Below are positions 1,778 through 21,045 of a stretch of DNA of 64,000 nt, one piece after another. Source of the DNA: Gemmatimonadaceae bacterium (GTDB taxonomy: Bacteria; Gemmatimonadota; Gemmatimonadetes; Gemmatimonadales; Gemmatimonadaceae); NCBI GenBank assembly GCA_030647905.1, contig JAUSJA010000034.1, positions 1 through 64,000 on the forward strand. Reading direction: 5' to 3'. The first letter of the stretch is position 1. Each line of letters opens with the position of its first letter. The notes under the pieces are model-generated. The model made no database searches. It worked only from the letters and a program-made list of their open reading frames with translations, and was not told where the DNA came from. A program made the position numbers and the translations under genes.

Positions 1778-1813
1778 CACAACTGTCCAGGAACACGAGA
1801 GAGCACCTTCGAC

Positions 1814-2020: not shown

Positions 2021-2077
2021 CGGCGATCAGCTACGGTCCACCGACTCTTCATCCTCCACAGCTCCGCAGCTTCTGAT

Positions 2078-2965: not shown

Positions 2966-3117
2966 GCCCCTAACATGCGTTGGACCAGACTAGGGGATTT
3001 CGGAGCGTAGCCTGCGGCCGCAGGATATGACGCTACCGCTGCTCAACTCGGATGTTAGACAGACTACGGTCGCGTGCGCTACCGAACAGATGTGTGATCA
3101 CTCAATAAGTTAGGTTG

Positions 3118-4964: not shown

Positions 4965-6104
4965 TTATGCGCGTAGCATGGCACCCTCCGGAACGAGTCC
5001 TGTATCGAGGTACCGCCAGAAGGCGATCAACAGCTTTCGCGCAAGGGCGACGATCCCGATCTTGCGCACTCGGCTACTGCCCGTGCCGAACTTCTGCTGA
5101 TACCAGCGGGCAAGCGCGCTCGCGGGTTGAAAGCGCAGCCACGCCCACGCCGTGTTGATCGCGAGCGCGCGGACCCAGCGGTTCCCTGCCTTGGAGATCC
5201 CTTGCTCGTGTTGCAGATCGCCGCTCTGGTAGTGCGTGTCGGTGAGTCCCGCGAGGCCGCCGACCTGGCGACGATTGCGGAACTGGCGCCACGCGAAGAA
5301 TTCCATGACGTAGAGCCAGGCGCTGTCGATTCCCACGCCGCGGAGTTGGTTGAGCTGGCGCACCTGGGCAATCGCTGGATCATCGGTGGTCTTGAGCAGC
5401 GCCCGGCGCTCTTTCTTGAGCGCGCGGATTCGCACCGTGTACCAAAGGACCGTCTCCCATTCGCGCGTGAGCCGCGCGCAGAGAAGCGGGGGCAGCGGCG
5501 TCCCGTCCCACAGTCGCGCGCTCACGACATGCGACGGCAGCTCCTGAATCCGCGCGAGCGGCACGCCCTGGCTGGCCAAGAGACCTTTGATCCGGTTCGT
5601 GTGCCGCCCGCGATCGCGCCGCGCGAATAAGAGCTCGCGGTGCACCTGGCGCTGATCCTCTGCCGCGGGCGCCGGTACGTTCACCACACTCCAGACCCTT
5701 TTCTCGCCGCCGGCCGCGCGGATGAGCATCGTCACGAGCTTGCAGGCATCGAGCCGATCCGTCTTCGTCCGGCGGCGGCGCCGATTCACCTCGATGCTCG
5801 AGGAATCGACGATACTGTTCGCAATGCTCCGGCTCACGAGATAGCGATGCAGCCAGAACCCATCACGGCCGGCCTCGTAGCAGCTTCGCACCGGTGCGCC
5901 GGCCGGCAACCCGAAGTGCGCCTTCGCCCGAGCGATCTCCGCCTCGAGCGCCTTGCGGTCGCGCGCCGGCATCGTGCGCACGAGCGGCGCCTGATCGATC
6001 CTGGTGGTCATCGCGAGCTTCCACTCGGCGTTGCCGAGTTCGAACGCGACGTATAACGTAGATGGAACACGTGACTTTTGGGGACGGGTCGCTGCTGGTC
6101 GCAT
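4965..6104 (-). CDS. IS110-family transposase
   Basis: This 379-residue transposase appears intact. The N-terminal DEDD (RuvC-like) domain shows YVAFELGNAEWKLA, CYEAGRDGFWLHR and TKTDRLDACKL. The C-terminal IS116/IS110/IS902 domain shows LRGVGIDSAWLYVMEFFAW, GLAGLTDTHYQSGD and GISKAGNRWVRAL. The first acidic catalytic position, usually Asp, is Glu here (FELG), a variant I associate with a subgroup of this family. The long opposite-strand frames in this interval are shadows. It is flanked by a 416-bp gap and by a degraded oxidoreductase fragment, consistent with repeated insertions in this island. Confidence 0.9.
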   Translation of the reverse strand: MRPAATRPQKSRVPSTLYVAFELGNAEWKLAMTTRIDQAPLVRTMPARDRKALEAEIARAKAHFGLPAGAPVRSCYEAGRDGFWLHRYLVSRSIANSIVDSSSIEVNRRRRRTKTDRLDACKLVTMLIRAAGGEKRVWSVVNVPAPAAEDQRQVHRELLFARRDRGRHTNRIKGLLASQGVPLARIQELPSHVVSARLWDGTPLPPLLCARLTREWETVLWYTVRIRALKKERRALLKTTDDPAIAQVRQLNQLRGVGIDSAWLYVMEFFAWRQFRNRRQVGGLAGLTDTHYQSGDLQHEQGISKAGNRWVRALAINTAWAWLRFQPASALARWYQQKFGTGSSRVRKIGIVALARKLLIAFWRYLDTGLVPEGAMLRA

Positions 6105-6218
6105 GGGCTTCTCCTTACGTGATGGTTTGGAGGAAGCCCGAACGTTGGCGGCCCGTCCGCGTGAACCGCCAGTTCCTACATAAGTTCTAACGTTGCTTGC
6201 ACCAGACGATCTTCAGTA

Positions 6219-6243
6219 GCGGCGGCTTCGCCGCCGCATTTTA
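6219..6243 (+). terminator. possible intrinsic terminator
   Basis: An 8-bp perfect GC stem (GCGGCGGC / GCCGCCGC) with a TTC loop is followed by ATTTTA on the plus strand. It lies in the gap upstream of the IS110 gene and before the oxidoreductase remnant. The short T-rich tail makes it only a moderate candidate. Confidence 0.4.
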
Positions 6244-6293
6244 TTGATTCGCCTGCAGGTGAAGCCCGGCGTTGCCGGCAACAACGAGGGTAA

Positions 6294-6590
6294 ATGAAAC
6301 TGCTTGTGTTTGGCGCGTCGGGTGCCACCGGCCGGTAGGTCATAACGCAAGCGCTCGCCCGTGACTTCGCGGTCACAGCGTTCGTGCGCAATCCCACCAA
6401 GCTCGGGATCGCCCACCCTGAACTCCCGCTCGGCGCAGTCGAGTTCGATCCGATACTCCATGACTGGCAGCCGTCGAGAGTCTCGTCGCATCCAAAGGCG
6501 ATGGAGCGACTTATCCGCGCAAGGGGAAGTAGAATGGCCATTCAGGCGCGATCCGCTCCTGTGATTGCTGATACTTCGGTCGGCGATTAG
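6294..6590 (+). pseudogene. NAD(P)-binding oxidoreductase (NmrA/SDR-like) remnant
   Basis: From ATG 6294 the frame reads MKLLVFGASGATGR, a Rossmann glycine motif, then TAG at 6333-6335. It continues in the same frame as VITQALARDFAVTAFVRNP and TKLGIAHPELPLGAVEFDP, the usual second strand and following region of NAD(P)H-binding family proteins. After about residue 60 the similarity stops and the frame drifts to TAG at 6588-6590. The gene is therefore both interrupted by a nonsense codon and truncated at its 3' side. It lies between the IS110 element and the restriction gene. Confidence 0.7.
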
Positions 6591-6716
6591 CGGCGCTCCC
6601 GGCGACGAGATCGCCGAACGCGACGCACATTACATGCTGGCCTCGCGCTCTGATCCAAGAAGGCCGAGATTTGCTCCTAGTCAAATAGCTAGGATCACAC
6701 TCATTCCCATTTACAT

Positions 6717-8033
6717 GTGACCTTCCATCCCGGCGCGAACGAAATCGAGTGGCTGGCAAGCTTAACGACGCTCGCTGAAGAAATCGGAGAGGAAGTGTTT
6801 GGCTATCCGATTCGTTGGAGAGTCGAGACTGGTTTGCGCCGTCGCCGTAATCGATCTGACGTGGTTATAGAAGACTCCGGGGGAACAATCATCATTACCG
6901 GTGAGGCCAAGCGGCCCGACGATCCGCACGGTCTGACTCCGCTCGACGTGAGTGAAGTAGATGACGCGGTCGGCAAAGCGCAGCATCAAGGATCGCGTTG
7001 GTGCTTTACCACCAATTTTCATCAGATCGCAGTGTTTGATGCTGGGTCTGGTTTGATGGCTAGCCCGTTGTCGCGATTGCAAGGTAATGTGATTCCGTTT
7101 ATCCCATCCTCACTCGCGCAATCAACTGGCTGGTGGGCCGCGTTAAGCGACGATCAGCGTCGCCAGTCTACTGAACTGGGACTCCGACGGCTCTTTGAGC
7201 GTACCAGAATGCTCCGACAGGGTGAGGAAGCCCTGGTTTTGGTCGATGAAGTAGTCGTTGATTTCTTCTCGGAGTTTGCCGCAAAGCTGTTGGATCCTCT
7301 TTGGCGCCACTTTCTGAATGACAACTCAGCTCGCGGAGCAACAATTCGTGAGCGGGCGCTAGTAGCTGGTCTCGACATCGATGACAGACAGGAAGCGAGA
7401 TACCTCGTAGCGCAGGGAATATTCGAAGTGCTCTCCGCTGCATTGTTCTACAGGCTCCTCGCCGACAATTTCGCGGAGCTACGACCGCTTCTTGGAGGGA
7501 CGAGCCCAAGAACCTCCGTCGTGCTTGCTAACACTGTGCACGCTTCTCTTACAGAAGCCGAGGGAATAACGGGGGACTACGAATCCATTCTGCGGTTGTC
7601 GGCGGTTGGGAATTGGGTTCTCCGACACGCCACGGCAGATGCAGTCCGGCATTGGAACGCTCTCCTCGCATTTGTCGACCGCCTCGATCTAGCTAATCTC
7701 TCAAGCGATGTCTTAGGGTCAATCTTCGAGCGTTTGATTTCGCCGGAACGGCGCCGGGAAATGGGACAGCATTATACGCAGCCCCGTCTCGCGCGAAGTA
7801 TGGCGAAATGGGCTGTCACTTCGAGGGACGATATTGTCCTCGATCCTACTTGTGGCGCCGGGACATTCCTCGTGGAGACGTACGGACGTCAGCGAGACCT
7901 CGGGGCGTCTCACGACGAGATTCTAGCTCGCACCTACGGCAACGATCTCGACCCGTTCGCTGTTCACCTCGCAGCCATCAACCTTGCGACTCGCCGATTG
8001 AGGCATGGTAGCAACCACCCGCTAGGTCTCTGA
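6717..8033 (+). pseudogene. restriction nuclease-adenine methyltransferase fusion, N-terminal part, split by IS630
   Basis: The N-terminal nuclease-like domain carries D48 with GEAKRP (E63, K65), a PD-(D/E)XK signature. A helical region follows, then MGQHYTQPRLARSM and VLDPTCGAGTFL, which is SAM-binding motif I of N6-adenine methyltransferases (D376). The genuine sequence ends at the TA at 8023-8024; the last residues and the TGA stop come from the inserted element. Removing bases 8025-9219 and one TA joins this frame exactly to the fragment at 9222-11156, giving an uninterrupted protein of about 1080 residues. Single-chain architecture suggests a type IIG-like restriction-modification enzyme. 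With the insertion in place the catalytic NPPY motif is separated from motif I, so neither part should methylate DNA alone. Confidence 0.85.
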
Positions 8034-9219
8034 CCGCCTGAAGAGTTAGCTAACGCTGATTGACGAAAGGGCACGAGGGCGGTATACTGGGGCATGCCAC
8101 GTCCCCCCTTGTCGTTCCGATTGAAGTCGCACGACGTGAAGGAGTTGGAGCACCTGTTGCACGGCGGTGTACAACAGGTGCGGGTCGTACTCCGCGCGCT
8201 GGCGCTGTTGCAGTTGGACCGCGGGGCCAGCGCGCCCGAGGTCGCACAAACGGTGCAGCTCACGCCGCCAGCGATTCGCAACATCGCCCAGCGCTACCGA
8301 ACCGGCGGCTTGGCGCGCGCGTTGTATGAGCGGCCGCGACCCGGAGCGGCCGAAGTGCTGGCCCCGTCCGACAAACAGCGGCTCATTGCCATGGTCTGTG
8401 CCGACCCACCGGCAGGGGCGGCGCGCTGGACGGTCCGCCTGATCGCGGAGCACGCGGTGAAGCGGAAGGTGGTGCCTCAGGTAGGGCGCGAGACGATCCG
8501 AGTGCTCTTGCAAAGCCACGACTTGAAACCGTGGCGGGAAAAAAATGTGGTGCGTGGCTGAGCTCACTCCGGAGTACATCGCGCGGATGGAAGACGTGCT
8601 GGCGCTCTACGAGAAGCCCTACGACCGGAAGGAACCGGTGGTCTGTTTGGATGAAAAGCCGGTGTCCCTGCATGCGGACGTGCGTCCTGGCCGGCCCGCC
8701 CGTCCGGGCCACGTGGCGAAACGCGACAATGAATACGAGCGCTGCGGCACTGCGAATATCTTCGGCGTGGTGGAACCGAAAGCAGGACGGCATTTCACGT
8801 GCGCGACCGCCAATCGGAAGGCGGCCCAATTCGCCCGGATGATTCGGACCGTTGTGACGGCTTATCCCGCCGCCCGAACCATCCATCTGGTGATGGATAA
8901 CCTCAACACGCACGGCGAAACGTCGCTCACCAACCAGTTCGGCCGGCGTACCGGCCACCGCCTCTGGCGCCGGCTCACGGTGCACTACACCCCGGCGCAT
9001 GGCAGTTGGCTCAATCAAGCAGAGATCGAACTGAGTCTGGTTGCACGGCAATGTCTCGGCACCCGCCGGATGGCGCAGCTCGCGCACCTCCAAGCCGAAA
9101 CCCGCGCGTGGAACACCAGAGCGAACCGCCGAAAGACCTGCATCCGTTGGCGCTTCACCCGAAAAGATGCCCGCACCAAGTTCGGATACACAAAGAAACT
9201 ATCTAGGCGGTCAGAGACC
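8025..9219 (+). mobile_element. complete IS630-family element inserted in the restriction gene
   Basis: The element is 1195 bp. Its ends are perfect 15-bp inverted repeats, GGTCTCTGACCGCCT at 8025-8039 and AGGCGGTCAGAGACC at 9205-9219. Each is flanked by TA (8023-8024 and 9220-9221), the target duplication characteristic of IS630/Tc1-mariner elements. It carries two overlapping transposase frames. Excision with loss of one TA restores the host reading frame exactly, so the insertion is recent relative to host gene decay. Confidence 0.93.
8094..8561 (+). CDS. IS630-family transposase, N-terminal ORF (helix-turn-helix part)
   Basis: This 155-residue ORF encodes the DNA-binding half: VRVVLRALALLQLDRG, APEVAQTVQLTPPAIRNIAQ (first helix-turn-helix) and a second winged-helix region ending KPWREKN. 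It overlaps the catalytic ORF by 17 bp. The expected family reading across the overlap is KPWREK-MWCVAEL. That needs a shift of one base within a run of seven A residues at 8539-8545. This is either a slippage site giving a fusion transposase or a simple indel. Confidence 0.85.
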   Translation: MPRPPLSFRLKSHDVKELEHLLHGGVQQVRVVLRALALLQLDRGASAPEVAQTVQLTPPAIRNIAQRYRTGGLARALYERPRPGAAEVLAPSDKQRLIAMVCADPPAGAARWTVRLIAEHAVKRKVVPQVGRETIRVLLQSHDLKPWREKNVVRG

Positions 9220-9222
9220 TAG
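8545..9222 (+). CDS. IS630-family transposase, catalytic DDE ORF
   Basis: The 225-residue catalytic part contains VVCLDEKPVSLH (first Asp), IHLVMDNLNTH (second Asp) and HGSWLNQAEIELS (Glu), so the DDE triad is present. The frame starts at ATG 8545 directly after a seven-A run and is +1 relative to the upstream ORF. Its TAG stop (9220-9222) is formed by the duplicated target TA plus the first host base, so the stop codon is supplied by the insertion site. Confidence 0.87.
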   Translation: MWCVAELTPEYIARMEDVLALYEKPYDRKEPVVCLDEKPVSLHADVRPGRPARPGHVAKRDNEYERCGTANIFGVVEPKAGRHFTCATANRKAAQFARMIRTVVTAYPAARTIHLVMDNLNTHGETSLTNQFGRRTGHRLWRRLTVHYTPAHGSWLNQAEIELSLVARQCLGTRRMAQLAHLQAETRAWNTRANRRKTCIRWRFTRKDARTKFGYTKKLSRRSET

Positions 9223-11156
9223 TTCGTCTCGGAGATGCATTCGATCTCAGAGCCGGTATTCAAATGCTTGAAGTCGGGTCGGAGCACCATGCCCTCCGGT
9301 CGCCCAACCTGATCATTGGTAATCCACCCTACGCCCGATCCCACCCCGATGAGGATCGGGCACGCGGCCGTCTTGAGGCGCTATTCGGCACGAGGGTGAG
9401 CCTGCCGGATACGACCGGGATCAACCTGAGTGCGTGGTTCGTCCTCTTGGCGAACGCGCTTCTGGCTGAGGGAGGTCGAATGGCTTTCGTCCTCCCCTCG
9501 GGAGTTTTACAAAACGAGAACGTAGCAGGTTGGCGACAGTGGCTTCGTCGGCGGTGGGACCTCGTAATATGGCATACTGAAGAGGATGTCTGGTTTAGCG
9601 ATGCAAGAGTCGCAACGTTCGCTGCACTCTTTAGTCCTCGCGGAAGGAACGCGACAGGAGCCGGCAGGGTTCACTTCGTGAATGTTCGGGAAGATGCGAC
9701 CGGCGAACTCATGTCGGTCGACGGTATTCCGTCTCCGGCTGCACGCGTCGTCATCCGTGATATTAGCGCAACACCCCCGGCTGGAGACTTACTCATCGCG
9801 GGAACAAAACCAGATGTGTTGCGTGAGTTCGAAGCTGCGCCAGCTACAACACTTATTCGCGACGCCGCCGGAATCGAGTCCGGCGCTGGTCAGAAGCTCG
9901 GTCACGCGTTTTTCAAGTTGAAAGACACGAATCCAGCAAGTGCGAGTTTGATACGAAATCTAACTGGCCTCGGCACAAGCGTTCGCCTCCACAGGCGGTA
10001 TCTCACCCCGCTCTTGACGGGTCCTAAGGAACTTGTGAGCGGCGAATCCAACGCTCCTGAGCATTGGCTTCTCACGTTGCCGAGAGAGTTGCCGACGAAT
10101 GCAGCGATCAGAGACTATATCCGGTACGGGAGAGCCGAAGAAGTGCACGTTGCACCGTCGGTGGAGTCTCGCGGCGATGCATGGTGGTCGCTGACTCCGG
10201 CGCTATGGGATATTGCGGTTCCCATGAGTGCGCAGTTCAAGCATCAGGTCGCCTATCTGAATCCAGCGGGAGCGGTCACCAATAATTTTCACGGTCTGAA
10301 GTTTGAAAATCCTCGGGACGGGCTGATCGTTGGCGCGTCGCTTGCGTCGGCGTTTGGCGCCCTAGCTCGCCTCTATGTCTCTGGCGAAATAGGATGTGAG
10401 GGCCTCCGTAGGGTCGCGTTAATACAGTTTCAAGAGTGGCCCATCCTCGATCCTTCGAGAGTGCGTGGAACTCGCCACGAAGCGCGCTGTTTACAGACTT
10501 ACGAGCGATGGCGGGTGTTCGATTCCTCGGAAATCGACGAAATGGCACCCGACGAGCTGGCCGCTTGGAGGGACCTAACCGAAGCCGTCGCAATTGCTGC
10601 ATTTGGAACCTCCGCTTCAGCCGCGCGATCTATGGCGGACTCCGCGATCACGGAAGCACAATCCACAGTGGCGCGTCGGCGTACCCGCGAAGCTGCTGCG
10701 CTCGGTGGGAGAACCCGGCAGGCAGGGGGAGCTAGAACGAGTGCCTCAGCGCGCCTGCGTCAGTGGTTAAGCGGTTCGAGCGAATTCCGGCGTGTAGTCG
10801 AGCTGTTGACCAGTGGCCCGACGCAGTATTCGCTGCGGAATGAAGGCGAACTACAGAATCTCGCTCTCTTCGAGAATGACCACCCGCTTGGCGCCGTGCC
10901 TTACATTGAACTCGAATTGATTAGGGTGCTCGGCGCGGGCTTCGACGCGGCATGGCCCGATCCCTCAGATCGCGAAGCCCTCGAAACGATCATCGTGATT
11001 GGCCGGGAATTACTGGATACGGCGATTACAGTGATCGCGGGAGAACCTCCGCCAGTAAACAGCCCGGCATCGGCCGCGTGGCGTGAGATTGCAGCCGCCG
11101 CTCTGGACGGACTCAGAAAAGCAATTCAGGTAGAAGTGCGAAAGACCCTTCTCTAA
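9222..11156 (+). pseudogene. restriction nuclease-adenine methyltransferase fusion, C-terminal part
   Basis: Read in the frame restored by excising the IS, this part begins VRLGDAFDLRAGIQ and soon reaches LIIGNPPYARS, the catalytic NPPY motif IV of N6-adenine methyltransferases (N470 of the restored protein). LLAEGGRMAFVLPSGVLQ, typical of the same fold, follows. A target-recognition-like region and a helical C-terminus follow. The piece could be translated alone from ATG 9264, but without motif I it should not bind SAM properly. It ends at TAA 11156. About 100 bp separates it from a 184-residue gene that may belong to the same locus. Confidence 0.83.
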
Positions 11157-11257
11157 GAGAGGGAGGGGGTCTGAAAGCCATCAGTGAGAAAGACGTGAAG
11201 GAACCGAGCGGAATAGTCGTGCGTGTCGAGCGCTTCTAGTGTCCGTCAATTTCGACT

Positions 11258-11812
11258 TTGCTCCCGGATTTCATACGTGAAATACGTGATGGATTGCGAG
11301 CACGCGACATGGAGCGGACCCGGACCGGCGTGACTAGAGTGGTGACAACCACTCGGATCGCGGCCAGGACGCTACATGATTGTGGAATTTTCATCAGCTC
11401 GGAGCGCACGGACTATAAGCGATGGGAGCTGTCTACTGCGGGATTACTCGTTGCTGCCTTGGTCCATCGAGCGGGACATCGAGTCGAGCTCACACGGCTC
11501 CAGAGCCCGACAGCCCCGAGACCCGGGGGATTGCTTGCTGAGCCCGTGCGAGACGCTTTGCTCCGGATGGAAGATGCAGCGTCTCTTACAAACGCAATAG
11601 AGATGCTTCGTGGGCCAAACAGAGAGGTATTTCCCAACTTCGACAAGGCGCTTCGCACGGTCTCAGCCTTGTGGAAGGAGACCGGTTCATCGCCCGCGAT
11701 CTCGGAGTCCCGAGCGGAGCTTTGCGCGAAGGCCGGGCTCTTACTCGATCAGGTCAGCGAGTGCATCCCCCCGGAAACCTTAAGGCATGACTTCTCCATC
11801 GGAGTGAAATGA
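11258..11812 (+). CDS. hypothetical protein next to the restriction gene, 3' end altered by an IS junction
   Basis: This 184-residue ORF starts at a TTG (11258). No family is recognised. It is helical and polar, with no signal peptide. The last 15 or so codons lie at the broken end of the minus-strand IS630 copy. The transposase frame runs into this gene's 3' end, so the natural C-terminus may have been lost and replaced by junction sequence. Position suggests an accessory part of the restriction locus, for example specificity or control, but nothing in the sequence shows this. Confidence 0.4.
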
Positions 11813-12675
11813 ATATGGTAGCGTGGCCGGCGCGCGAGCCACGCTCTCACACGGGCATGTTTATGAGTCGAGTAGTTGTCGATGATGAGATGCAAATCGA
11901 GCTCCGGTGGGACGCTTGCATCGACGTAATTGAGGAAGGTGAGGAATTCCTGATGGCGATGGCGTCTTTTGCACTGCGTCAGGACTTCCCCGCTTTGGAC
12001 ATCTAGTGCAGCGAAGAGCGTAGTCGTGCCGTGGCGCTTGTAATCGTGGGTTATTCCCTCGACATAACCCAATCCCATCGGCAAGAGCGGCTGACTACGC
12101 TCCAGCGCTTGAATCTGGCTCTTCTCGTCGACCGAGAGGACAAGCGCTTTATCGGGAGGATTGAGATAGAGCCCGACGATGTCGCTGACCTTTTCAAACT
12201 AGAACGGATCGGTAGAGAGCTTGAAATGCTTCGTTCTGTGCGGCTGTACACCAAAGAGAGAGAAATAGCGTTGCACGGTGCTCTTGCTGATACCGGTCTT
12301 CTGGGCGACGCTTCGAACACTCCAGTGAGTAGAGTTCCTGGGCTTTTTTTTGAGCACGGTGCGGAGCATCTGGGCGACTTCATCCTCGTCGTGAGTGCGG
12401 GGTCGCCCGGGTCGGGATACATCATAGAGGCCCGCGAGACGATTCTCATTGAATCGATTGCGCCAATAGCCGACGATAGGGAGGCTTACGCTGACTGTTT
12501 GTGCAATGTTGCGATGCGTGGCACCCCCGGCCGAGAGGAGGATGATCCGCGCACGCCGAACCATTCCCGCGGGGAGCGAAGTGGAGCGGGTGATGTGCTC
12601 CAATTCTTCTCTCTCATTATCGGACAACATGATGTTGAAACTGGGGGCGCGTCCTCGAGGCATGGCATCCTCCAA
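11749..12675 (-). pseudogene. IS630-family transposase, nonsense-interrupted and 3'-truncated
   Basis: Reading leftward, residues MPRGRAPSFNIMLSDNERE and VSLPIVGYWRNRFNENRL give the HTH part and SVRSVAQKTGISKSTVQRYF a second HTH. A TAG (12199-12201) falls in frame after STDPF. The frame then continues with [12 protein letters not shown] (first Asp) and [11 protein letters not shown] (second Asp). Immediately after YHIHFTP the family sequence ends, so the motif with the catalytic Glu and the terminal repeat on this side are missing. The element is dead and has suffered a deletion at its 3' side near 11800. Its intact side truncates the AlbA_2 gene at about 12715-12730. Confidence 0.85.
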
Positions 12676-12710
12676 AGAGAAAATATCACCATGCCAATAT
12701 GTATTACTTA

Positions 12711-12989
12711 TTAATGGGACACAAGACTAGGGATCCCTGGGATGGTCGCGGGTAACCCAGTATTCTGGCCGTTGGTGTCCTTGAGCTCGAGAACGCCGTA
12801 AATAATCACGCCTCCAGCCGTGTTGGCCAACGCGGTGGCATCAGCAAGAAATTCCTTTTTCTCGCCGGAAGACGAGCCAGGCAGCTCGAGTTTGTAGTCG
12901 AGCTGACGCGACTCGCCGACGCCGTTCTCTACCAAATGCTGTAGTTCCCCCGGCTCAATGTCACCGACAAATTTCCCGCGAAGCCTCAT
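12711..12989 (-). pseudogene. AlbA_2 (Schlafen-like) domain protein, 3'-truncated by IS630
   Basis: Ninety-two residues remain. ESRQLDYKLELPG, then KKEFLADATALANTAGGVIIYGV, is the N-terminal core of AlbA_2/AAA_4 proteins, a putative nucleic-acid-binding or RNase-related domain. Family similarity runs to ATIPGI. The last residues and the stop come from the end of the neighbouring IS630 remnant. The rest of the protein, usually 300 residues or more, is absent. It starts 36 bp after the HEPN-like gene on the same strand, suggesting a former two-gene operon. Confidence 0.75.
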
Positions 12990-13025: not shown

Positions 13026-14192
13026 TCAGCTTGTTGTCCGTGAGGCTTCCGATTGCATAGCTTCCTCGAATGCTTTTGCCAGCACGAGCACCATAGGACG
13101 TTGCCTTGCGCGGCTCAATGCCGCCCGCCAGGGGAAGTTCGGGTTATCGGGATTACCGCTGAATGGCTTTAGCGTAGCCAGAGTATCGAATGCCTCAACC
13201 TTGGCCACGTCGTCCGCTGTCAGCTCGTAGTATCCGGCTTTTGCAAGCACACCTTTCGCAAATAGCGGGAATGCAAAAGCTGCAAGCAGCAAATGCTCGC
13301 GAGTGGTCCATATCGCCGAATAGGGAGGCGCTTCGACGTGACCGTGCCCGTACTGACTCCGCAGAACATAAGCATCCCCTAGCCACACTTCCCGTATCGA
13401 TTTCCCTGACCGCATTGCCGTCGACAGGGCTTTGTTTGACGCTACACCGCCGAAATACCGCCTGTCCGGTTCAGTCTCAGGACGAAATGCCGCCAAGAAG
13501 CCTTCCACCGTTCCTCGCTGATCCCAAGCTCCCGAGAGTCTGCTGAAGGCGCTGACGATATCTATCAATTCGGTGTGTTGGCTTATGTCTGGGCTGTCCG
13601 TGTTTCCACCGACGAAAAGCCTCAAGGCATCGGAAAACGGAAACCAATTCACATCTCCTTCCTTCGCCGCGGCCTCAAGCGCATGTAGGAGTTCTTGATC
13701 CAGGTCGCGAGGCAACTCGCACGATCCCGAGACATGCTCCGGTCGCCTTACATCAAGCCGACCTTTGGGAATCAACGTCGTACTGGACCCGTCGCGACGG
13801 CGGCTGGTGACGGCGGCGCCACCGGCACGTTCCGAAGTAAAGGCTTGAATCGTCAGCCGAGCGTTGTCGCTGTTGACGTACCTGTGGGTAAAAAACTCTC
13901 TTTCTGAGAGAATCGCGAAGGCCAAGCGAGTTCTAAAATCGAAATAGTCCGTGACTTGTTGGTCGGTAAGATCATGCGTAAACGACGAGTCGTCGTGCCG
14001 GAGCAAAGGCGTCGAAGCCATGTCTACGGCACGCATTCGACCATAGGATCCCAATACGGCTTCCGCGGCCGCCTTCAAATCGCTCGTTATTTCGCCCCCC
14101 GAAAGGGCTGCAGAGTAGGGAACGATGTGAAAGTCCCCGAAGCGGAGGCGCCTGGTGCAGGTTGACCAAGGCAAGAACGCGAGCATACTCAT
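13026..14192 (-). CDS. HEPN-like hypothetical protein
   Basis: A 388-residue soluble protein, ATG at 14192. No family is firmly recognised. Near residues 275-286 it shows DAYVLRSQYGHGHV, close to the Y-x-x-RS-x-x-x-HG pattern of HEPN domains. R278 and H283 form an R-x4-H motif like that of HEPN ribonucleases. A helix-rich stretch (TREHLLLAAFAFPLFAKGVL) follows. The gene precedes an AlbA_2 gene on the same strand and diverges, with only 41 bp between, from the DUF4365-NACHT genes. An RNase or toxin-type effector is a reasonable but untested reading. Confidence 0.5.
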   Translation of the reverse strand: MSMLAFLPWSTCTRRLRFGDFHIVPYSAALSGGEITSDLKAAAEAVLGSYGRMRAVDMASTPLLRHDDSSFTHDLTDQQVTDYFDFRTRLAFAILSEREFFTHRYVNSDNARLTIQAFTSERAGGAAVTSRRRDGSSTTLIPKGRLDVRRPEHVSGSCELPRDLDQELLHALEAAAKEGDVNWFPFSDALRLFVGGNTDSPDISQHTELIDIVSAFSRLSGAWDQRGTVEGFLAAFRPETEPDRRYFGGVASNKALSTAMRSGKSIREVWLGDAYVLRSQYGHGHVEAPPYSAIWTTREHLLLAAFAFPLFAKGVLAKAGYYELTADDVAKVEAFDTLATLKPFSGNPDNPNFPWRAALSRARQRPMVLVLAKAFEEAMQSEASRTTS

Positions 14193-14233: not shown

Positions 14234-15259
14234 ATGACACGCGAATCATCACAGGACGCCTTTGAACGGCGATACATGGCCGCATTCGAAGCTCTCGCCG
14301 CACAACATGGAATCGTTGTGAAGTACCAGCGCGATCGGGCGGCCCGTGACATAGGGTTACACCTGACGAAACCCGACCGCGAGGGCGCCGAGACCTTAAC
14401 CTCGTCGTTGGTTTGGTTCCAGATGAAGGGAATAACGGCTGCGGTGTTGACGAAAGAGACATTTGCCTCGAGCAACTATGTCAAACTTTGAATTCGCGTT
14501 AGGGATTTGCAGTTTTGGTATCGACAACCCGTTCCGACGTACCTCGTTGCATACATCGAAAGCGTCAATACGTTCCTCATCGTGGACGCAAATGCCTTTG
14601 TTGAAAAGACGTACGGGAAAGGTATCTTCACTCTGCCGCAAGCATCCGTCACCGTGCCGATACGATGCGACAGTGTCTTAGACGCGCATGCTTTTTCAAT
14701 CTTACTTCGTAAAGGCGAGTTAACCGAATGGGCCCGGCTTCTCGACGCACCGCCCGGCGAAATGAAACTGAGCCAGCGTGACTATTCGGTAATATGGCAC
14801 ATAGGCACCCAAAAGAAGCGCGACGTGGAAATACGACTAACATTTCGGGACTGGCAGTCGAAGCTTAGAAGCGAGATGTACTTCGAAGAGCGAAAGCGCG
14901 AGCAATCGGAATGGGAGGAGTGTCGCACTCATTGGCAGTACATGTTGAGAATCGGCGAGCTCGAAGAAACTTATCCATATCTAACATTTGCGCGCTTCGA
15001 TGAAGAGCGGCAGGAGGAAAGTGAGTTTTTTGATAATGAGGATGGTGAACCTCTCATCGAGCTTGGAGATGGTACCCAAGTGTACGGGACGAATGTTGCC
15101 GATGAGTATCACCAGTATGAATTCCTGGTGGGGCTGAATGCGGTCGGAGATCAGATGCTCAGCTGGGTCAAGACCCTTCAGGATCTTGGAGTCATTCAAG
15201 TTTCAGAATCAGTAAGCGAATTCATAGACGTTGCTCCTTGGCATTGGCGAGGCATTTAG
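14234..15259 (+). pseudogene. DUF4365 nuclease-like protein with in-frame TGA
   Basis: From ATG 14234 the frame reads QHGIVVKYQRDRAARDIGLHL, then SLVWFQMKGI, matching the DUF4365 pattern of a conserved Asp followed by Q-x-K-G, a PD-(D/E)XK-like arrangement. TGA at 14489-14491 interrupts it at codon 86. The same frame continues without shift as IRVRDLQFWYRQPVPTYLVAY, the next conserved DUF4365 segment, and runs to 15259. The full reading is about 341 codons. The downstream part alone (from TTG 14507) would lack the catalytic-like residues. The 3' end lies just before, or overlaps, the large NACHT gene, so the two are probably one operon. A nonsense mutation is the simple explanation. Confidence 0.75.
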
Positions 15260-15456
15260 TGTCTCCCTGCATCAACGTTCAGAGCGGTAGGTTCGCTTAC
15301 GCGACGCGTGAAACGTATCAGGAAATCGGTCGACGAAAGGTTGGCTATTTCAAAGATCGTGTCTGCCGCGCATGGAACCGGAAGACAACCGGCTATTTCC
15401 CTTGGCAAAAGGCTCAGCGGATTGACAGCAGCTCGAATAAGCAGCGAGTCACAGCT

Positions 15457-18400
15457 GTGCTATCGTGCTCTCGCTCAGCCTGCACCATCATCCTTATCGT
15501 CGCCCTCTCCGGGCGGGCAGGTGCTCAAGTTCCGGTTGAGACGTTGGTCGATTCGTTGCGGAGCAAAATAGCAGCGACACGAGAGAGTAGTAGAGACTCA
15601 CTTACCGCGCTTGGCTCGGCCGCAGTTCGAACCTTAATGAGGGCTCTGTCTGATCCAACTGCCGTTGTGCGTGAAGGAGCCGCAATCGTCCTAGGCCAAA
15701 TCGGACGACCTTCCGCGCCCGCGATGCCGGCGCTGGTAGAGACCTTGGCTGATCAGTCATTTGGGGTGAGGCTCGCTGTGTCGCAGGCGTTGAAACGAAT
15801 TGGCCCAGCTTCCGTCGCGCTGCCCCGACTTGCACAACTCGCTGCTGGCGCGGACAACTACACTGCTCTACTCGCTGTCGAGGCGATGGGCAACACCGGT
15901 GCGGATGCGGCTGTGCATCTTCAGGTACTCATTCAACTGATGGGTCGCGGCGACGAAGACTTCAAGAGCGTCGTCATCACGAGCATAGGCAGGATTGGGC
16001 CGCTCGCGTCGCCTGCAATCCCGCGGTTGATAGATGCAGCTCGTTCAGAATCACCGGGGATTGAGAGTCAAGCGATCGAAGCGCTGGGGAAGATCGGGTC
16101 GGCTGCAGCCCCTGCAGTCACCACGGTGACGTCTGCGGCACGCGATCCTGCTCGAGAAGTTCGAATTGCAGCGACACACGCGCTAGCGAGGCTCTCATTG
16201 GTGAGCCCCGAAGTACGGCCGGTCCTGATAGGAATGCTGCAAGATACCGATCCCAGGGTTCGCTCACAGGCGTTGGCGAGCGTCAAGACAATTGTTCCAC
16301 TCAGTGATCAAGAGTTGCCTGCTGTGGCAGAATTACTTCGAGATCCGGATATCGAAATTCGGCAAGAGGCAGTGCAAATCATTGAAGCCCAGAAGGCTTC
16401 AGCGCGGCCTGCAGAACGTCAACTACTCGCAGCGCTCTTCGATTCGTCGCCGTTCGTTAAGCAACGGGCTGCTTTGTCGCTAAGGGCATTAGCCCCCATA
16501 TCACCTGAAGGGATTCGGGCCATGCTCCCCGCATTAGCAGACTCGAATTATCTCACGAGTAAGACGTTGATTGAAACGATCGGAGCATCTGGAAGATCTG
16601 CCAGAATTGCCGTTCCGACCCTTGTAAGGCTGCTTGAGGATCCCCTGACCCACGGCCCCGCCCTGGCCGCATTAAAAAGAATTGGGCCACAAGCTGATGA
16701 AGTGGTTCCAGCGCTGATTCAATTAAGCGACCTGGATGTCGTAGGAACGCTTTCAGATCTCGGGCTCGGCGCCGTGCCGCAACTGAGAACTGCCCTCCGA
16801 AGTGGAACGACGGGGATTCGCCGTCGAGCTGTTTCGTCGCTGGTGAGGATTGGGGCACGCGACACGTTGACTATCAAGAGTCTCGTTCTGGCGCTGCGGG
16901 ATACCGACCCGTCAGTCAGTGAGACTGCGGCCGGTGGGCTCGTGGCAATTGGAGCGGGCAGCATAGAGTTCGTCGTCCGGGCGCTTTCCGATCCAAGCTC
17001 GGAAGTGCGCATTCGTTCCCTGCGTGTTCTCGCACAACTGCCAGCAAGCGCTCGACCCAAGCTGCCCACACTGCGTTCGGTTCTAAACGATTCGGTTGCT
17101 GCCGTCCGATATGAGGCTGCAGTGGCGATATCCACCATTGAGTCGCCCGGCGAGCTGCTATTGCGTCCTCTCATTCTCTCGCTGAACGCAACCGAACCAG
17201 CAACTCGCCGGAGAGCCGCGGCTGCAATCGAAGTGATCGCCAAAGACATGGCGGATGCATCGCGGATCGAAGCGATCCCGATACTTCAAGAGGCGGCACG
17301 TGCGCTCAGTGCCAATTCAGACGATTCGGTTCGTATGCATGCGAAAGAAGTCGAGCGAAGTGTTCGGTATCTTGGAGTTGTCTGGTGGCAAAAGCTGCTA
17401 CGGGCAGTTCGGGAATTCGAGTCCGAGCACCGAATCGCTACTCTCGTCGCCGCCGCATACGTACTTGTGTTAGTGGCCTGTTTGTTGGCTCTCTGGTTGC
17501 GGCCACTTCTTCTCTTTCGTGTCAATCACACGCTCAGCCGTGTGACCGAAATCAAGCTTCCTGAGGCCCTCGGCGGCGTCAGGATACCGTTGTCGTACTT
17601 GCTCGTCGTAGGGATCTTCCGTTATCGCGCTAGAGTGTTGAGGGCTTGGGCGGCGGCGAATGTCGCCGCAGCAGCTCGAGCTTTCGAAGAACGGCGCACC
17701 GTGGAGGATAGAAGAATCCACGTACCCATGCCTGTGGTGTTCGACCGAACCGTGGTAGCTACTCCATCCGCTGCCACTTTCCGCCCGCTATTCCGCCAGA
17801 AGCGAAGCGCACTGGTTATATACGGCGAAGGAGGGGCAGGGAAGACGAGTCTGGCGGTACAACTGGCTCGCTGGGCGATGGTTGTAGACCCTGAGTTGCG
17901 TCTGAATCCTCACGCAGTAATGCTGCCGCTGCTGCTTGAATACGATCTCGGCGGGGAGCACGCATCGTTGGGCACACTGGTTGATTCCCTTGGTGGACAG
18001 CTTCGAACCTCTCTGGGGCTAGAGCGTCCATTGCGGGCCGACCTTCTTCTGAGACTTCTCCAGCAAGGTCTGATACTGGTGATAATCGATCATCTGTCCG
18101 AGATGAGCGATGAAACAAGAAAAGCAATCCGTTTCGACTCTGCCGACTTTCCGATCAACGCGTTGATCGTTACCTCGCGGATTGAAGAAGAGCTTCAAGG
18201 GACGCCGCGAAGCGTCGTAACGCCCCTGCGGATACAGGGCAACCGATTGTCTTCATTCATGGAGGCCTATCTCACCCAACGAGGATGGCGCAATGCATTT
18301 GATGATGCTGAATACTTCGAGGCGTGCCGTCGACTCTCGGAAATGGTTGGTCAGCGCGATATCACTGTCCTGCTTGCGAAGCTCTATGCCGATCAACTCA

Positions 18401-18993
18401 TCGCTGAAAAGGAGGCTCCATCGGCCGAGGGGCTTCCACGAAATATCCCTGAGTTGATGCTCAGCTACCTTAACGAGGTCAACCGATCCGCTGGCCCTGA
18501 CGACCCGGACGATAGAACCGTCCATCGGACTGCAAAGATTGTTGCCTGGGCCTGCTTGCGCGACACCTTACGGCCCGTCCCCGCGAGTCATGACGCGGTG
18601 GTGCGGGATCTTGGAGGTGATCTCATAGCGACGCCGTTGATCCGCTATTTCGAGGAGAAGCTGCGTCTGTTGCAGACTGTTGGACCAGCCCGGGATCGTC
18701 TCCGATTTTCGTTGGACCCCGTCGCTGAATACTTAGCGGCGATCCACCTAGTCGAGAGTCTAGGCACTGACACATTGAAGTGGCACGAATGGATGTCGCA
18801 AGCTGAATCGGAACTGCTGAAATCACCGACTGCGTACAGTTTCATCCTCGCGGTCCGAGACAGCTGCGAGGCGAAATCGACCGCGGAGTCGAACTTGGAC
18901 TCCGTCATTGTGGATCTTTCCAAGCTCGTCGTGAAGGCAGTTGAACGTATACAACCCGCGAGTCACACAACGGCCGAGCAGCGAGAAGCCTGA
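15457..18993 (+). CDS. membrane NACHT ATPase with N-terminal extracytoplasmic HEAT repeats
   Basis: About 1178 residues. GTG 15457 is preferred because it starts directly on a signal peptide (residues 1-23, ending SGRAGAQ). An open frame extends to TTG 15238, which would overlap the preceding gene. Residues about 25-640 are HEAT/PBS-lyase-like repeats with recurring units such as VVREGAAIVLGQIG and EVRIAATHALARL. A transmembrane helix lies at about 660-683 (LVAAAYVLVLVACLLALWL). The cytoplasmic part holds a NACHT/STAND ATPase: Walker A GEGGAGKTS (790-798), Walker B LILVIIDH (D878) and sensor-like ALIVTSRIEEE. A helical C-terminus follows. In known bacterial NACHT defence proteins the sensor repeats are usually C-terminal and cytosolic. 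Here they precede the ATPase and should face the periplasm. An immune or signalling sensor is inferred. Confidence 0.8.
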   Translation: MLSCSRSACTIILIVALSGRAGAQVPVETLVDSLRSKIAATRESSRDSLTALGSAAVRTLMRALSDPTAVVREGAAIVLGQIGRPSAPAMPALVETLADQSFGVRLAVSQALKRIGPASVALPRLAQLAAGADNYTALLAVEAMGNTGADAAVHLQVLIQLMGRGDEDFKSVVITSIGRIGPLASPAIPRLIDAARSESPGIESQAIEALGKIGSAAAPAVTTVTSAARDPAREVRIAATHALARLSLVSPEVRPVLIGMLQDTDPRVRSQALASVKTIVPLSDQELPAVAELLRDPDIEIRQEAVQIIEAQKASARPAERQLLAALFDSSPFVKQRAALSLRALAPISPEGIRAMLPALADSNYLTSKTLIETIGASGRSARIAVPTLVRLLEDPLTHGPALAALKRIGPQADEVVPALIQLSDLDVVGTLSDLGLGAVPQLRTALRSGTTGIRRRAVSSLVRIGARDTLTIKSLVLALRDTDPSVSETAAGGLVAIGAGSIEFVVRALSDPSSEVRIRSLRVLAQLPASARPKLPTLRSVLNDSVAAVRYEAAVAISTIESPGELLLRPLILSLNATEPATRRRAAAAIEVIAKDMADASRIEAIPILQEAARALSANSDDSVRMHAKEVERSVRYLGVVWWQKLLRAVREFESEHRIATLVAAAYVLVLVACLLALWLRPLLLFRVNHTLSRVTEIKLPEALGGVRIPLSYLLVVGIFRYRARVLRAWAAANVAAAARAFEERRTVEDRRIHVPMPVVFDRTVVATPSAATFRPLFRQKRSALVIYGEGGAGKTSLAVQLARWAMVVDPELRLNPHAVMLPLLLEYDLGGEHASLGTLVDSLGGQLRTSLGLERPLRADLLLRLLQQGLILVIIDHLSEMSDETRKAIRFDSADFPINALIVTSRIEEELQGTPRSVVTPLRIQGNRLSSFMEAYLTQRGWRNAFDDAEYFEACRRLSEMVGQRDITVLLAKLYADQLIAEKEAPSAEGLPRNIPELMLSYLNEVNRSAGPDDPDDRTVHRTAKIVAWACLRDTLRPVPASHDAVVRDLGGDLIATPLIRYFEEKLRLLQTVGPARDRLRFSLDPVAEYLAAIHLVESLGTDTLKWHEWMSQAESELLKSPTAYSFILAVRDSCEAKSTAESNLDSVIVDLSKLVVKAVERIQPASHTTAEQREA

Positions 18994-19025
18994 CGAGCTG
19001 TTGTCCTTCACCCGTTTCAACTGAC

Positions 19026-19271
19026 ATGCGGACTGAGTTGGAGCAGCTGCTCGATCAATGCGTGGCGGAGAACGGCGGCAGGCTTGTCGGGGATCCTTCG
19101 ATAACGTTCGACGGCGCCAGTACTCGTTTAGAGGTCGACAAGCACGAGTGGTGGGACGCTCTGATGCGCATTCGCTTTACTCAGTTCGTATTGGTTGGCG
19201 CAAATCGGATTATTGCTGCGTCCGCAGCGAACACTGATGCATCCTTTGAGGACATGCAGGGGTCGAGTTAG
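19026..19271 (+). CDS. small hypothetical protein downstream of the NACHT gene
   Basis: An 81-residue protein, ATG 19026, 32 bp after the NACHT gene and in the same direction, so probably cotranscribed. It is acidic at the start (RTELEQLLDQCVAENGG), and its middle, VDKHEWWDALMRIRFTQFVLV, could form a short strand-helix core. No family is recognised and there is no signal peptide. It is the last gene of the island before the tRNA-Arg gene. Confidence 0.45.
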   Translation: MRTELEQLLDQCVAENGGRLVGDPSITFDGASTRLEVDKHEWWDALMRIRFTQFVLVGANRIIAASAANTDASFEDMQGSS

Positions 19272-19438
19272 CAGGTGGATGAGGAAACCCTGCTCGCGGT
19301 GATGAATGAGCCGCGCAAGCTATCAGCGCGGGTCCAGAGCGCCTGATTTCGTGGAAACGGCCCCACAAACAGCCCCCGCTCTGAAGCAGGCAACAGAAAC
19401 ACATTTGGCAACAGGCACGTGTTCAACGACTTACGACA

Positions 19439-19512
19439 TGCGCCCGGAGGGGCTCGAACCCCCAACCTTCTGATCCGAAGTCAGATGCTCTATCCAATTG
19501 AGCTACGGGCGC
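19439..19512 (-). tRNA. tRNA-Arg (TCG)
   Basis: On the minus strand a cloverleaf starts GCGCCCG at 19512 and closes with CGGGCGC plus discriminator A at 19439. The anticodon loop CTTCGGA gives TCG, reading the Arg codon CGA. The T-arm GGTTCGAGCCCC region is normal. CCA is not encoded. The 3' end faces the mobile, defence-like region to the left, the usual orientation for a tRNA used as an island attachment site. Confidence 0.95.
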
Positions 19513-19564: not shown

Positions 19565-19993
19565 CTACTCGACGGTGACCGTTCCGCGCATCCCCGGATG
19601 CGGCTCACAGTGATACGGGAATGTTCCCGCCGCCGGAAACTCGCGCGTGTAGGTCGCGCCGGGCGCGAGGAGTGGTGACTTCCACGTGCCGGCATCGGCG
19701 GTGCTCGTGTGGGCGTCGGTGCCCTGTGCGCCGCAGTTCACCCATGTGACTTTCATGCCCGGACGCACCCGCACCTGCGCCGGAATGAACGTGAAGTCGC
19801 GGATTATCACGACCGTCGAGCCGAACGCGTCCGACGGAAGCTGCGCGTTGCAACCGGTGAGATCGGTGCCGGTCCCGGTCGCCCGCTCCGACAGACAACC
19901 AGCGATCGCGATAGTCACGGCGGCAAGCGAGGCGCCAAGAACGAGTCTGGCGCGCGCGACGCGCACACCCCGCATGACGTTGACGGCGCTCAT
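19565..19993 (-). CDS. cupredoxin-domain lipoprotein
   Basis: A 142-residue protein. ATG at 19993 overlaps the stop of the upstream gene as ATGA, so the two are translationally coupled. A lipoprotein signal ends in the lipobox AIAGC near residue 31. The mature part is a plastocyanin/azurin-like type-1 copper domain. It has RDFTFIPAQVRVRPGMKVTW and ligand candidates in DAHTST (His), FPYHCEPHPGM (Cys, His, Met). It should act as a periplasmic or outer-membrane-anchored electron carrier or copper-binding protein. The longer frame extending to 20464 overlaps the upstream gene and is not used. Confidence 0.87.
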   Translation of the reverse strand: MSAVNVMRGVRVARARLVLGASLAAVTIAIAGCLSERATGTGTDLTGCNAQLPSDAFGSTVVIIRDFTFIPAQVRVRPGMKVTWVNCGAQGTDAHTSTADAGTWKSPLLAPGATYTREFPAAGTFPYHCEPHPGMRGTVTVE

Positions 19994-21045
19994 TGGTCCG
20001 TCACCACTACCACACCCTTCATGAACGGGTGCGGCATGCAATAGAAGTTGTATGTCCCCGCTTTCGTGAACGTGTGCCGGTATGTCTTGCCCGGCTGGAT
20101 CAGTCCGGAATTGAAGCTCTTGTCCACTGCACTGACACTGTGCGGCAGCGGATCGCTGTTCCTCCATTCGATCGTCGTGCCGACGGCAATATTGAGTCGC
20201 GGCTGGAGGTAGCTGATGTTCTTGATCACCGTACGAACGGTGTCCACCAGCGCGGCGGTCGCGGAGACAGTGGTGTCGGAGAAATCCTGCGCTCTCTTCC
20301 CGAAGTACCGGCGAAGGGTGAGCGGAATCGTGAACTCGAATCCATACCTGACACTGCTCGAACCGCGCGACGCACCCTGAAGCGTGGCGACCGGCGCGTT
20401 CGTCGCGTGCAGCGAAAGCGTGTGAGGCGTCAGCGGGATGGCGATATGCAGCCCGGCGCTCCATGCCACCCGCTCGGTCGAATCGCGGTCAGTGAGCGAT
20501 GCGACGTCTCCAGCGAGCGCGACATACTGGCCGAGGCGAATCGTCGCTCCACTGGCAACAGCGAACCGCGTGTTACGTGCTTCGAGCGGATCCGAGAGAA
20601 CGCGCCCGGCGACGATCAGTCGCGCGATACCGAATCGCTTCGCGACGGACACTTCGCCGTCGATCCCGTCAGCCGCATTGTTGTAGCCTGCTCGCACACC
20701 GACGTCGAGAGGAGCGCCGTAGTCCTCACCCAGCGGAGCCCAGCGTGCGAACAGCTCCCACTCGTTCGGAAAGTTCGGCGCGAGCGTCGAGTTCGTCGAG
20801 TAATTGAATCCTGCGAGCAGTCGCCTCGGCAGTCCCGCCGCGAGAAGAAACGTCGGTACGTTGGAGACCTTTCGCTGCGGCGCCTGACTCGCCGTGAACC
20901 GATGCACGAAATGAAAGTACAGTGTGCCAGGAGCACCGACCCAATCGCCCGACACGTTTGGCGATCGGTCGAGAAGCGATTGTGCCTCCGCGGCAGCGGG
21001 CAGTGCGAGCACGACGGAAAGGAGCAGTTTACGCATCAGGCGCAT
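19990..21045 (-). CDS. beta-barrel protein (DUF5777-like) with C-terminal cupredoxin domain
   Basis: A 351-residue protein. ATG 21045 is chosen because AAGGG lies 7-11 bases upstream and MRLMRKLLLSVVLALPAAAEA is a clean signal peptide. Residues about 20-250 resemble DUF5777-type outer-membrane barrels (LYFHFVHRF, then alternating strands such as FGIARLIVAGRVL). The last 90 residues form a cupredoxin domain, with LPHSVSAVD (His) and YNFYCMPHPFMKG (Cys, His, Met) as copper ligands. It is coupled by ATGA overlap to a second cupredoxin lipoprotein, suggesting a shared copper or electron-transfer role at the cell envelope. Confidence 0.75.
   Translation of the reverse strand: MRLMRKLLLSVVLALPAAAEAQSLLDRSPNVSGDWVGAPGTLYFHFVHRFTASQAPQRKVSNVPTFLLAAGLPRRLLAGFNYSTNSTLAPNFPNEWELFARWAPLGEDYGAPLDVGVRAGYNNAADGIDGEVSVAKRFGIARLIVAGRVLSDPLEARNTRFAVASGATIRLGQYVALAGDVASLTDRDSTERVAWSAGLHIAIPLTPHTLSLHATNAPVATLQGASRGSSSVRYGFEFTIPLTLRRYFGKRAQDFSDTTVSATAALVDTVRTVIKNISYLQPRLNIAVGTTIEWRNSDPLPHSVSAVDKSFNSGLIQPGKTYRHTFTKAGTYNFYCMPHPFMKGVVVVTDQ

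What the first reader, a model, noticed from the sequence alone, without database searches (positions are those of the whole stretch)
14234..19271. HEAT-repeat receptor fused through the membrane to a NACHT ATPase, next to a nuclease-like DUF4365 gene
The large protein reads signal peptide, about 600 residues of HEAT repeats, one membrane helix, then a NACHT ATPase with intact Walker A (GEGGAGKTS) and Walker B. That order puts the repeats outside the cytoplasm and the ATPase inside. Described bacterial NACHT/Avs-type defence proteins are mainly cytosolic, with sensor repeats after the ATPase. A DUF4365 nuclease-like gene directly upstream and a small gene 32 bp downstream suggest a three-gene cassette. 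Together they could detect an event at the envelope and trigger a nuclease. Topology and gene order are seen; the immune role is inference.
Basis: partly seen in the sequence, partly recalled or inferred. Interest (0 to 1): 0.8.

Follow-up and report, generated by a model that had tools for sequence, protein, structure and literature searches.

The report
Membrane-spanning NLR-like receptor in bacteria
The window encodes a bacterial relative of animal NLR immune proteins that appears to be built as a surface receptor, with a fast-changing repeat domain outside the inner membrane and an NLR-type ATPase inside; related genes occur mainly in filamentous cyanobacteria, and nothing about its function has yet been tested.

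Summary
The large protein is real: 1178 aa at 15457-18993, with a signal peptide, about 600 residues of HEAT repeats, one membrane helix, then a full NACHT module. Its predicted fold matches closed NLRC4/NLRP3/NOD2 (VIA-align Z 16-17.5). It belongs to a family I found in about 50 loci, mostly filamentous cyanobacteria, with single cases in Calditrichota, Bacteroidota and a Rhizobium plasmid, where a YCF48 beta-propeller replaces the HEAT repeats. Three results support an outside ectodomain: conserved signal peptides, a fixed helix-to-ATPase spacing, and near absence of cysteine (0 in residues 24-659 here; 9 in 9,761 residues over 29 proteins). In one clade the HEAT repeats lie on the cytoplasmic side and do carry cysteines. 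Between close relatives the HEAT part changes faster than the ATPase, and often by whole repeats, as a recognition module would. The proposed three-gene cassette is not supported: no relative has the DUF4365 gene or the small ORF nearby, and DUF4365 here carries an in-frame stop. Best reading: a transmembrane STAND receptor that senses an envelope event and assembles at the inner membrane. The immune role is plausible but unproven.

The parts
15457..18993 (+). Transmembrane NACHT (STAND) receptor gene, 1178 aa, GTG start
   Evidence: Open frame and domain hits; codon periodicity begins near 15457; relatives
15457..15525 (+). Signal peptide (residues 1-23, predicted cut AGA|Q)
   Evidence: Sequence; the same pattern (charged start, hydrophobic stretch, often ...WAQ) in most relatives. 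No signal-peptide predictor was available.
15529..17406 (+). HEAT-repeat ectodomain (about residues 25-650), free of cysteine
   Evidence: PF13646 E=4e-50; all-helical AlphaFold model; no Cys in residues 24-659
17434..17499 (+). Membrane helix (residues 660-681)
   Evidence: Hydropathy maximum 2.77; one helix in the model; the helix begins about 110-135 residues before Walker A in nearly all relatives
17500..17796 (+). Conserved stretch between the membrane and the ATPase (family consensus RPLWLL...YxPRVLDAWV)
   Evidence: Nearly invariant columns R682, P683, L686, R726, V727, L728, D729, W731
17635..18972 (+). NACHT module (nucleotide-binding, HD1, winged-helix and HD2 parts; residues about 727-1172)
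   Evidence: Fold match to NLRC4, NLRP3 and NOD2, Z 16-17.5
17824..17850 (+). Walker A GEGGAGKTS (790-798)
   Evidence: G793, G795, K796, T797, S798 invariant in A4
18076..18105 (+). Walker B LVIIDHLSEM (874-883), family variant DHxSE
   Evidence: D878, S881, E882 invariant
18172..18180 (+). Sensor-1-like TSR (906-908)
   Evidence: S907 and R908 invariant
18712..18738 (+). Winged-helix motif LDPVAEYLA (1086-1094)
   Evidence: D1087, P1088, A1090, E1091, Y1092 invariant
18841..18927 (+). NCH4-like C-terminal helices (weak here, strong in relatives)
   Evidence: E=0.026 here; down to 1e-22 in relatives
14234..15259 (+). DUF4365 (PD-(D/E)XK-like) gene interrupted by TGA at 14489-14491; neighbour, not shown to be part of the system
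19026..19271 (+). Small ORF of 81 aa, no known relatives; not shown to be part of the system
19272..19346 (+). Last 24 codons and stop of a tyrosine recombinase (island end)
   Evidence: Aligned with a longer copy at the same place in G015
19439..19512 (-). tRNA-Arg (TCG), likely integration site of the island

Best explanation
It is a single-pass transmembrane STAND receptor. Shown by sequence and comparison: an exported HEAT-repeat domain, one membrane helix and a cytoplasmic NACHT module, kept together as a family. Inferred: the HEAT domain recognises something in the periplasm or at the envelope, such as an adsorbing phage part, a foreign protein or envelope damage. Binding releases the closed, ADP-type NACHT, which swaps nucleotide and gathers into a ring at the inner membrane. 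No effector domain is recognisable, so the output is either the clustered membrane helices themselves (loss of membrane integrity, a suicide response) or recruitment of an unlinked partner. Immune defence is the most likely purpose but is not shown.
For: Signal peptide and pre-ATPase membrane helix conserved across the family. Cysteine almost absent from the ectodomains (9/9761 residues) against 40/3802 in the cytoplasm-side HEAT of the sister clade; Fisher p=8e-15, p=2e-7 without the most Cys-rich protein. A beta-propeller typical of exported proteins replaces HEAT in Rhizobium. NACHT fold Z 16-17.5 to closed NLRC4/NLRP3/NOD2 at rmsd about 5, against Z about 12 and rmsd about 10 for active rings. 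NACHT under purifying selection (omega 0.07-0.28) while the HEAT part has a higher omega in every pair (0.13-0.93) and often differs in length between close relatives. Patchy spread: only 1 of 395 genomes sampled in its own phylum (also 1 of 298), plasmid copies, integrase or integrase remnant next to two non-cyanobacterial copies.
Against: No topology predictor or experiment. The charge rule around the helix is neutral (mean 2.47 K/R before, 2.49 after). No effector identified. No constant partner gene. Most cyanobacterial neighbours are ordinary chromosomal genes. Fast change of the repeats could be relaxed constraint or repeat shuffling; dS is raised there too.
Confidence: 0.6

Rival explanations
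1. A non-immune membrane receptor: an envelope-stress, nutrient or cell-cell signalling protein of large filamentous cyanobacteria that uses a STAND ATPase as its switch, picked up by chance elsewhere.
For: Most copies are in filamentous cyanobacteria and many lie among ordinary chromosomal genes shared between related strains.
Against: Patchy within cyanobacteria (8 of 244 genomes), paralogues per genome up to several, plasmid and integrase contexts, HEAT part changing much faster than the ATPase. A housekeeping receptor would be expected to be more constant.
Confidence: 0.25
2. The membrane helix and signal peptide are the effector, and HEAT the sensor, as in ordinary STANDs. In the window's group the repeats happen to be inserted before the helix and act outside; in the other group they follow the ATPase and act inside. 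The response is membrane disruption by clustered helices.
For: The signal peptide-helix-NACHT core is the constant part and HEAT the movable part. HEAT evolves fast on both sides of the membrane.
Against: A single helix with no unusual features; no direct evidence for a pore.
Confidence: 0.35
3. One reading: receptor, DUF4365 nuclease and small ORF form one cassette in which the receptor triggers the nuclease.
For: Same strand, close spacing; DUF4365 is a PD-(D/E)XK nuclease domain used as an effector in short-Argonaute systems (PMC10810196); its D and QMK residues are present.
Against: No homologue of either neighbour near any other family member; the nearest DUF4365 relative has other partners; the nuclease gene carries an in-frame stop.
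Confidence: 0.05
4. The N-terminal segment is not an export signal and the whole protein apart from its anchor is cytoplasmic.
For: The hydrophobic stretch in the window protein is short (about 10-12 residues); the charge rule is neutral.
Against: Signal peptides are clear in relatives; the cysteine contrast between the two groups; the beta-propeller variant.
Confidence: 0.1

Closest known systems
Bacterial NACHT (bNACHT) anti-phage proteins, e.g. bNACHT25 (PMC12169576)
   Same: Central NACHT module; C-terminal helical NCH-type domain (NCH1 there, NCH4 in this family)
   Different: bNACHT25 has an N-terminal PD-(D/E)XK nuclease fused on; this family has an exported ectodomain and a membrane helix in that position and no recognisable effector domain
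Avs (antiviral STAND) proteins
   Same: STAND ATPase with helical repeats likely to act as sensor
   Different: From general knowledge of the Avs papers (not held): Avs are cytoplasmic, effector first and repeats last; here the repeats come first and outside
AjNLRC4 of the sea cucumber (PMC8699970)
   Same: Extracellular recognition domain (Ig), membrane helix, intracellular NACHT; reported to oligomerise on binding
   Different: An animal protein with two membrane helices and Ig domains; resemblance of plan only, no homology of the outer part tested
DGR-diversified STAND/NACHT sensors of Thiohalocapsa and other multicellular bacteria (PMC10907252)
   Same: NACHT tied to a diversifying recognition domain; some predicted periplasmic; multicellular hosts
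   Different: Diversified by a reverse transcriptase in a C-type-lectin domain; I did not search for diversity-generating retroelements, and the diversification seen here is in repeats
NTP-dependent conflict systems of multicellular prokaryotes (PMC7159879)
   Same: Membrane-near STAND-type systems in cyanobacteria and other multicellular bacteria
   Different: In the passages I read, TM segments belong to vWA/MoxR and GTPase systems; this SP-HEAT-TM-NACHT layout is not described there

Membership tests
NACHT-clade STAND NTPase | Walker A and Walker B Asp | tested here: met
   G793, G795, K796, T797, S798 and D878 invariant
NACHT-clade STAND NTPase | NBD-HD1-WHD-HD2 fold | tested here: met
   NLRC4 Z 17.5 over 398 residues; NLRP3 17.2; NOD2 16.6; NB-ARC only 11.6
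NACHT-clade STAND NTPase | Pfam NACHT (PF05729) above its cut-off | tested here: inconclusive
   Window protein 13.3 bits against 26.7; several relatives above it, e.g. L048 32.3, L055 34.5
NACHT-clade STAND NTPase | Winged-helix histidine (NLR FxHxxxxEF motif) | tested here: inconclusive
   By motif register only, the family has FxLDPxAEYLA, a Leu where NLRs have His; no residue-level structural alignment was made
Anti-phage bNACHT | C-terminal NCH-type helical domain | tested here: met
   NCH4 strong in relatives (down to 1e-22); weak in the window (0.026)
Anti-phage bNACHT | Protects against phage | not testable with these tools
   -
Avs | Effector first, STAND ATPase, C-terminal repeat sensor | tested here: not met
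   HEAT lies before the membrane helix and the ATPase; the protein ends at the NACHT module
Single-pass receptor with exported ectodomain | Signal peptide and a single stop-transfer helix | tested here: met
   Sequence and family conservation; no dedicated predictor available
Single-pass receptor with exported ectodomain | Composition of an exported domain (no unpaired Cys) | tested here: met
   0 Cys in residues 24-659; family contrast p=8e-15
DUF4365 nuclease (PF14280) | Intact domain with D and QxK residues | tested here: not met
   D39, Q63 and K65 present and shared with the Ruegeria homologue, but the gene is interrupted by TGA after codon 85
SPARDA short-Argonaute system | Short Argonaute with APAZ partner beside DUF4365 | tested here: inconclusive
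   No such gene among the annotated neighbours; no dedicated Argonaute/APAZ search was made

The most novel reading that the evidence does not exclude
Bacteria have true surface NLRs: a family in which a hypervariable ectodomain (HEAT repeats or beta-propeller) outside the inner membrane controls an NLR-type NACHT inside, so that recognition happens before an invader enters and the inflammasome-like ring forms at the inner membrane. One clade has moved the same repeat module to the cytoplasmic side.
Probability: 0.35. Interest if true: 0.85.

Novelty: new variant of a known kind. Interest (0 to 1): 0.65.

Why it matters
NLR-type proteins are thought of as cytosolic sensors; surface sensing is assigned to other receptor classes. 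A conserved bacterial family that joins a fast-evolving outer domain through the membrane to a complete NLR-like NACHT module would show that surface detection and NLR switching were combined in bacteria too, in parallel with the one animal case I found (AjNLRC4). It also gives a testable system: the same repeat module sits outside in one clade and inside in another, so the place of sensing can be compared within one family.

Tried and rejected
(1) Cassette with DUF4365 and the small ORF: searched in all family loci, none found; small ORF without relatives. (2) Constant partner genes: clustering of 530 neighbour ORFs gave only groups shared by related strains; PADLOC and Pfam scans of 101 neighbours gave no common defence partner. 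Uma2 genes recur (7 of 101) but come mostly from one lineage and are, to my knowledge, very common in cyanobacteria. (3) Phages and viral contigs: no relatives. (4) Positive-inside rule at the helix: neutral. (5) Sequence search of solved structures: only weak P-loop matches, NOD2 at E=2; the fold search was needed. Bacterial Avs structures are not among the listed best matches, which excludes nothing. (6) The first full-length search in relatives found HEAT-only hits. (7) An early query and alignment (A1) used two parts of the Nostoc plasmid copy joined across an insertion; I dropped it, used the pieces separately afterwards and rest no conclusion on it. (10) A locus labelled group B in the tree, L037, is an N-terminally truncated fragment and should be ignored there. 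(11) The main bacterial NLR papers (Cell 2023, Science 2022) are not held, so the absence of a description in the literature is not shown.
Full report
What is there. The open frame at 15457-18993 encodes 1178 residues: a signal-peptide-like start, HEAT repeats (PF13646, E=4e-50), one membrane helix at residues 660-681, and a P-loop ATPase with GEGGAGKTS and LVIIDH. The 198 bases before GTG 15457 lack the codon pattern of the gene, so that start is the likelier one. The DUF4365 gene upstream is broken by an in-frame TGA at 14489-14491 and is recognised by Pfam only when the stop is read through. The small ORF downstream has no known relative.

The ATPase is a NACHT module. Pfam's NACHT model scores low on this protein, but several relatives pass its cut-off. 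An AlphaFold model of the membrane-plus-ATPase half, built from 30 family members, is confident (pLDDT 86.8, pTM 0.81). Its best matches among solved structures are NLRC4, NLRP3 and NOD2 (Z 16-17.5, about 380-400 residues, rmsd about 5). Inactive NLR structures fit better than active rings (NLRC4 4kxf Z 17.5, rmsd 5.2, against 8fw2 Z 11.8, rmsd 10.3), so the prediction resembles a closed switch. The full-length model has lower confidence (pLDDT 77, pTM 0.47) and is used only to show an all-helical repeat region.

It is a family. A plasmid search found relatives of the membrane-ATPase half in Nostoc, Scytonema and Rhizobium. A scan of one genome per species gave 53 loci, nearly all filamentous cyanobacteria, plus a Calditrichota genome and Fibrisoma (Bacteroidota). 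A profile search found it in 8 of 244 sampled cyanobacteria, 1 of 198 in the phylum of Fibrisoma and 1 of 40 in that of the Calditrichota genome. In 299 genomes of the phylum of the alphaproteobacterial locus L071 the only match was that locus's own fragment at a contig end. In the window's own phylum this genome alone has it (1 of 395 and 1 of 298). These are samples, not censuses. The copy in the window therefore looks acquired.

The membrane-spanning plan is conserved. Nearly all complete members have an N-terminal signal-peptide-like segment and a membrane helix that begins about 110-135 residues before Walker A. Two layouts occur. In group A, which includes the window, the HEAT repeats lie between signal peptide and helix. 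In group B a short linker replaces them and HEAT repeats follow the ATPase at the C-terminus. The Rhizobium protein carries a YCF48-type beta-propeller in place of HEAT. In the tree most of group B forms one well-supported cluster, with two short-ectodomain members (L064, L067) at its base; several long branches, the window's among them, make detailed placement unsure. One row labelled B there (L037) is a truncated fragment.

Evidence that the ectodomain is outside. No dedicated predictor was available, so I used composition. From residue 24 to 659 the window protein has no cysteine. Over 29 group A proteins the ectodomains hold 9 cysteines in 9,761 residues, against 205 in 13,682 for the ATPase part. 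The cytoplasm-side HEAT of group B, the natural control because it is the same type of repeat, holds 40 in 3,802 (Fisher p=8e-15; p=2e-7 without the most cysteine-rich protein). Relatives are not independent samples, so the p-values are indicative; per protein, 5 of 29 against 12 of 15 have any cysteine. The positive-inside rule was neutral.

The repeats are the variable part. In pairs whose NACHT part is 91-96% identical, the HEAT part is mostly 69-85% identical in group A (93% in one pair) and 66-67% in two group B pairs, and its length often differs, by about one repeat (32-33 residues) or by many (149, 282 and 461 residues among three relatives). The ratio of amino-acid-changing to silent change is 0.07-0.28 for NACHT and 0.13-0.93 for HEAT, higher for HEAT in every pair. 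Silent change is also often raised in HEAT, so repeat shuffling or alignment of non-equivalent repeats contributes. This is what a recognition module would show, but relaxed constraint is not excluded.

Genome context. A tRNA-Arg (19439-19512) is followed on its 3' side by the last 24 codons of a tyrosine recombinase (19272-19346). A longer remnant lies at the same place in a relative, G015, that lacks the receptor. To the left are broken modification and kinase-like genes and insertion-sequence remnants. The receptor gene is the largest intact gene of a decayed island. Next to the Fibrisoma copy is a phage-type integrase, and the Nostoc, Scytonema and Rhizobium copies are on plasmids. In cyanobacteria most neighbours are ordinary chromosomal genes.

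The cassette idea. No homologue of DUF4365 or of the small ORF lies near any family member. The nearest full-length DUF4365 relative, 36% identical, is beside two other ATPase genes in Ruegeria. The residues thought to be catalytic (D, QxK; compare PMC10810196) are present before the stop.

Mechanism. Most likely the exported repeats bind an envelope-side trigger, the closed NACHT opens and assembles at the inner membrane, and the cell responds either through the clustered helices or through a partner not encoded nearby. The layout is shown by comparison; ligand, assembly, output and purpose are inference. No paper that I could search describes this layout in bacteria, but the main bacterial NLR papers are not held, so novelty is judged with that limit. 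The closest published plan is an animal protein, AjNLRC4 (PMC8699970), and some NACHT sensors of Thiohalocapsa are predicted to be periplasmic (PMC10907252).

Noticed in passing
window 19272-19346 and 19439-19512; L089 7331-8000: A tRNA-Arg with the remnant of a tyrosine recombinase at its 3' side in two genomes of the same genus: a repeatedly used integration site.
   Followed up: partly
window 241-12989: Decayed island genes: C-terminal half of a Ser/Thr kinase (241-1146), DNA methyltransferase in two pieces (6717-8033, 9264-11156), IS110 transposase (4965-6104), IS630 remnants (11749-12675), AlbA_2 fragment (12711-12989).
   Followed up: partly
window 13026-14192 (-): A 388-aa protein of unknown family facing away from the receptor gene; no Pfam, PADLOC or NCBIfam match.
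   Followed up: no
L016 6152-9469: Nostoc plasmid copy continues after the NACHT into a formylglycine-generating-enzyme domain, and is interrupted by an insertion with stops.
   Followed up: partly
L027, L029, L045, L046, L047, L067: ORFs of one cluster, represented by a Uma2 nuclease-like gene in L046, lie close to the receptor in these loci; Uma2 genes are probably too common in cyanobacteria for this to mean much.
   Followed up: partly
window 18706-18738; alignment A5: The whole family has FxLDPxAEYLA where animal NLRs have FxHxxxxEF, and DHxSE in place of the usual DGxDE in Walker B: a family signature that may change how the closed state is held.
   Followed up: no
L050 7056-13718: Two family members in tandem (874 and 888 aa) in Oscillatoria sp. 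PCC 10802.
   Followed up: no
L090, L091, L092 against window 19565-21011: Neighbouring outer-membrane/plastocyanin-type gene is patchy and split into pieces among members of the genus.
   Followed up: no
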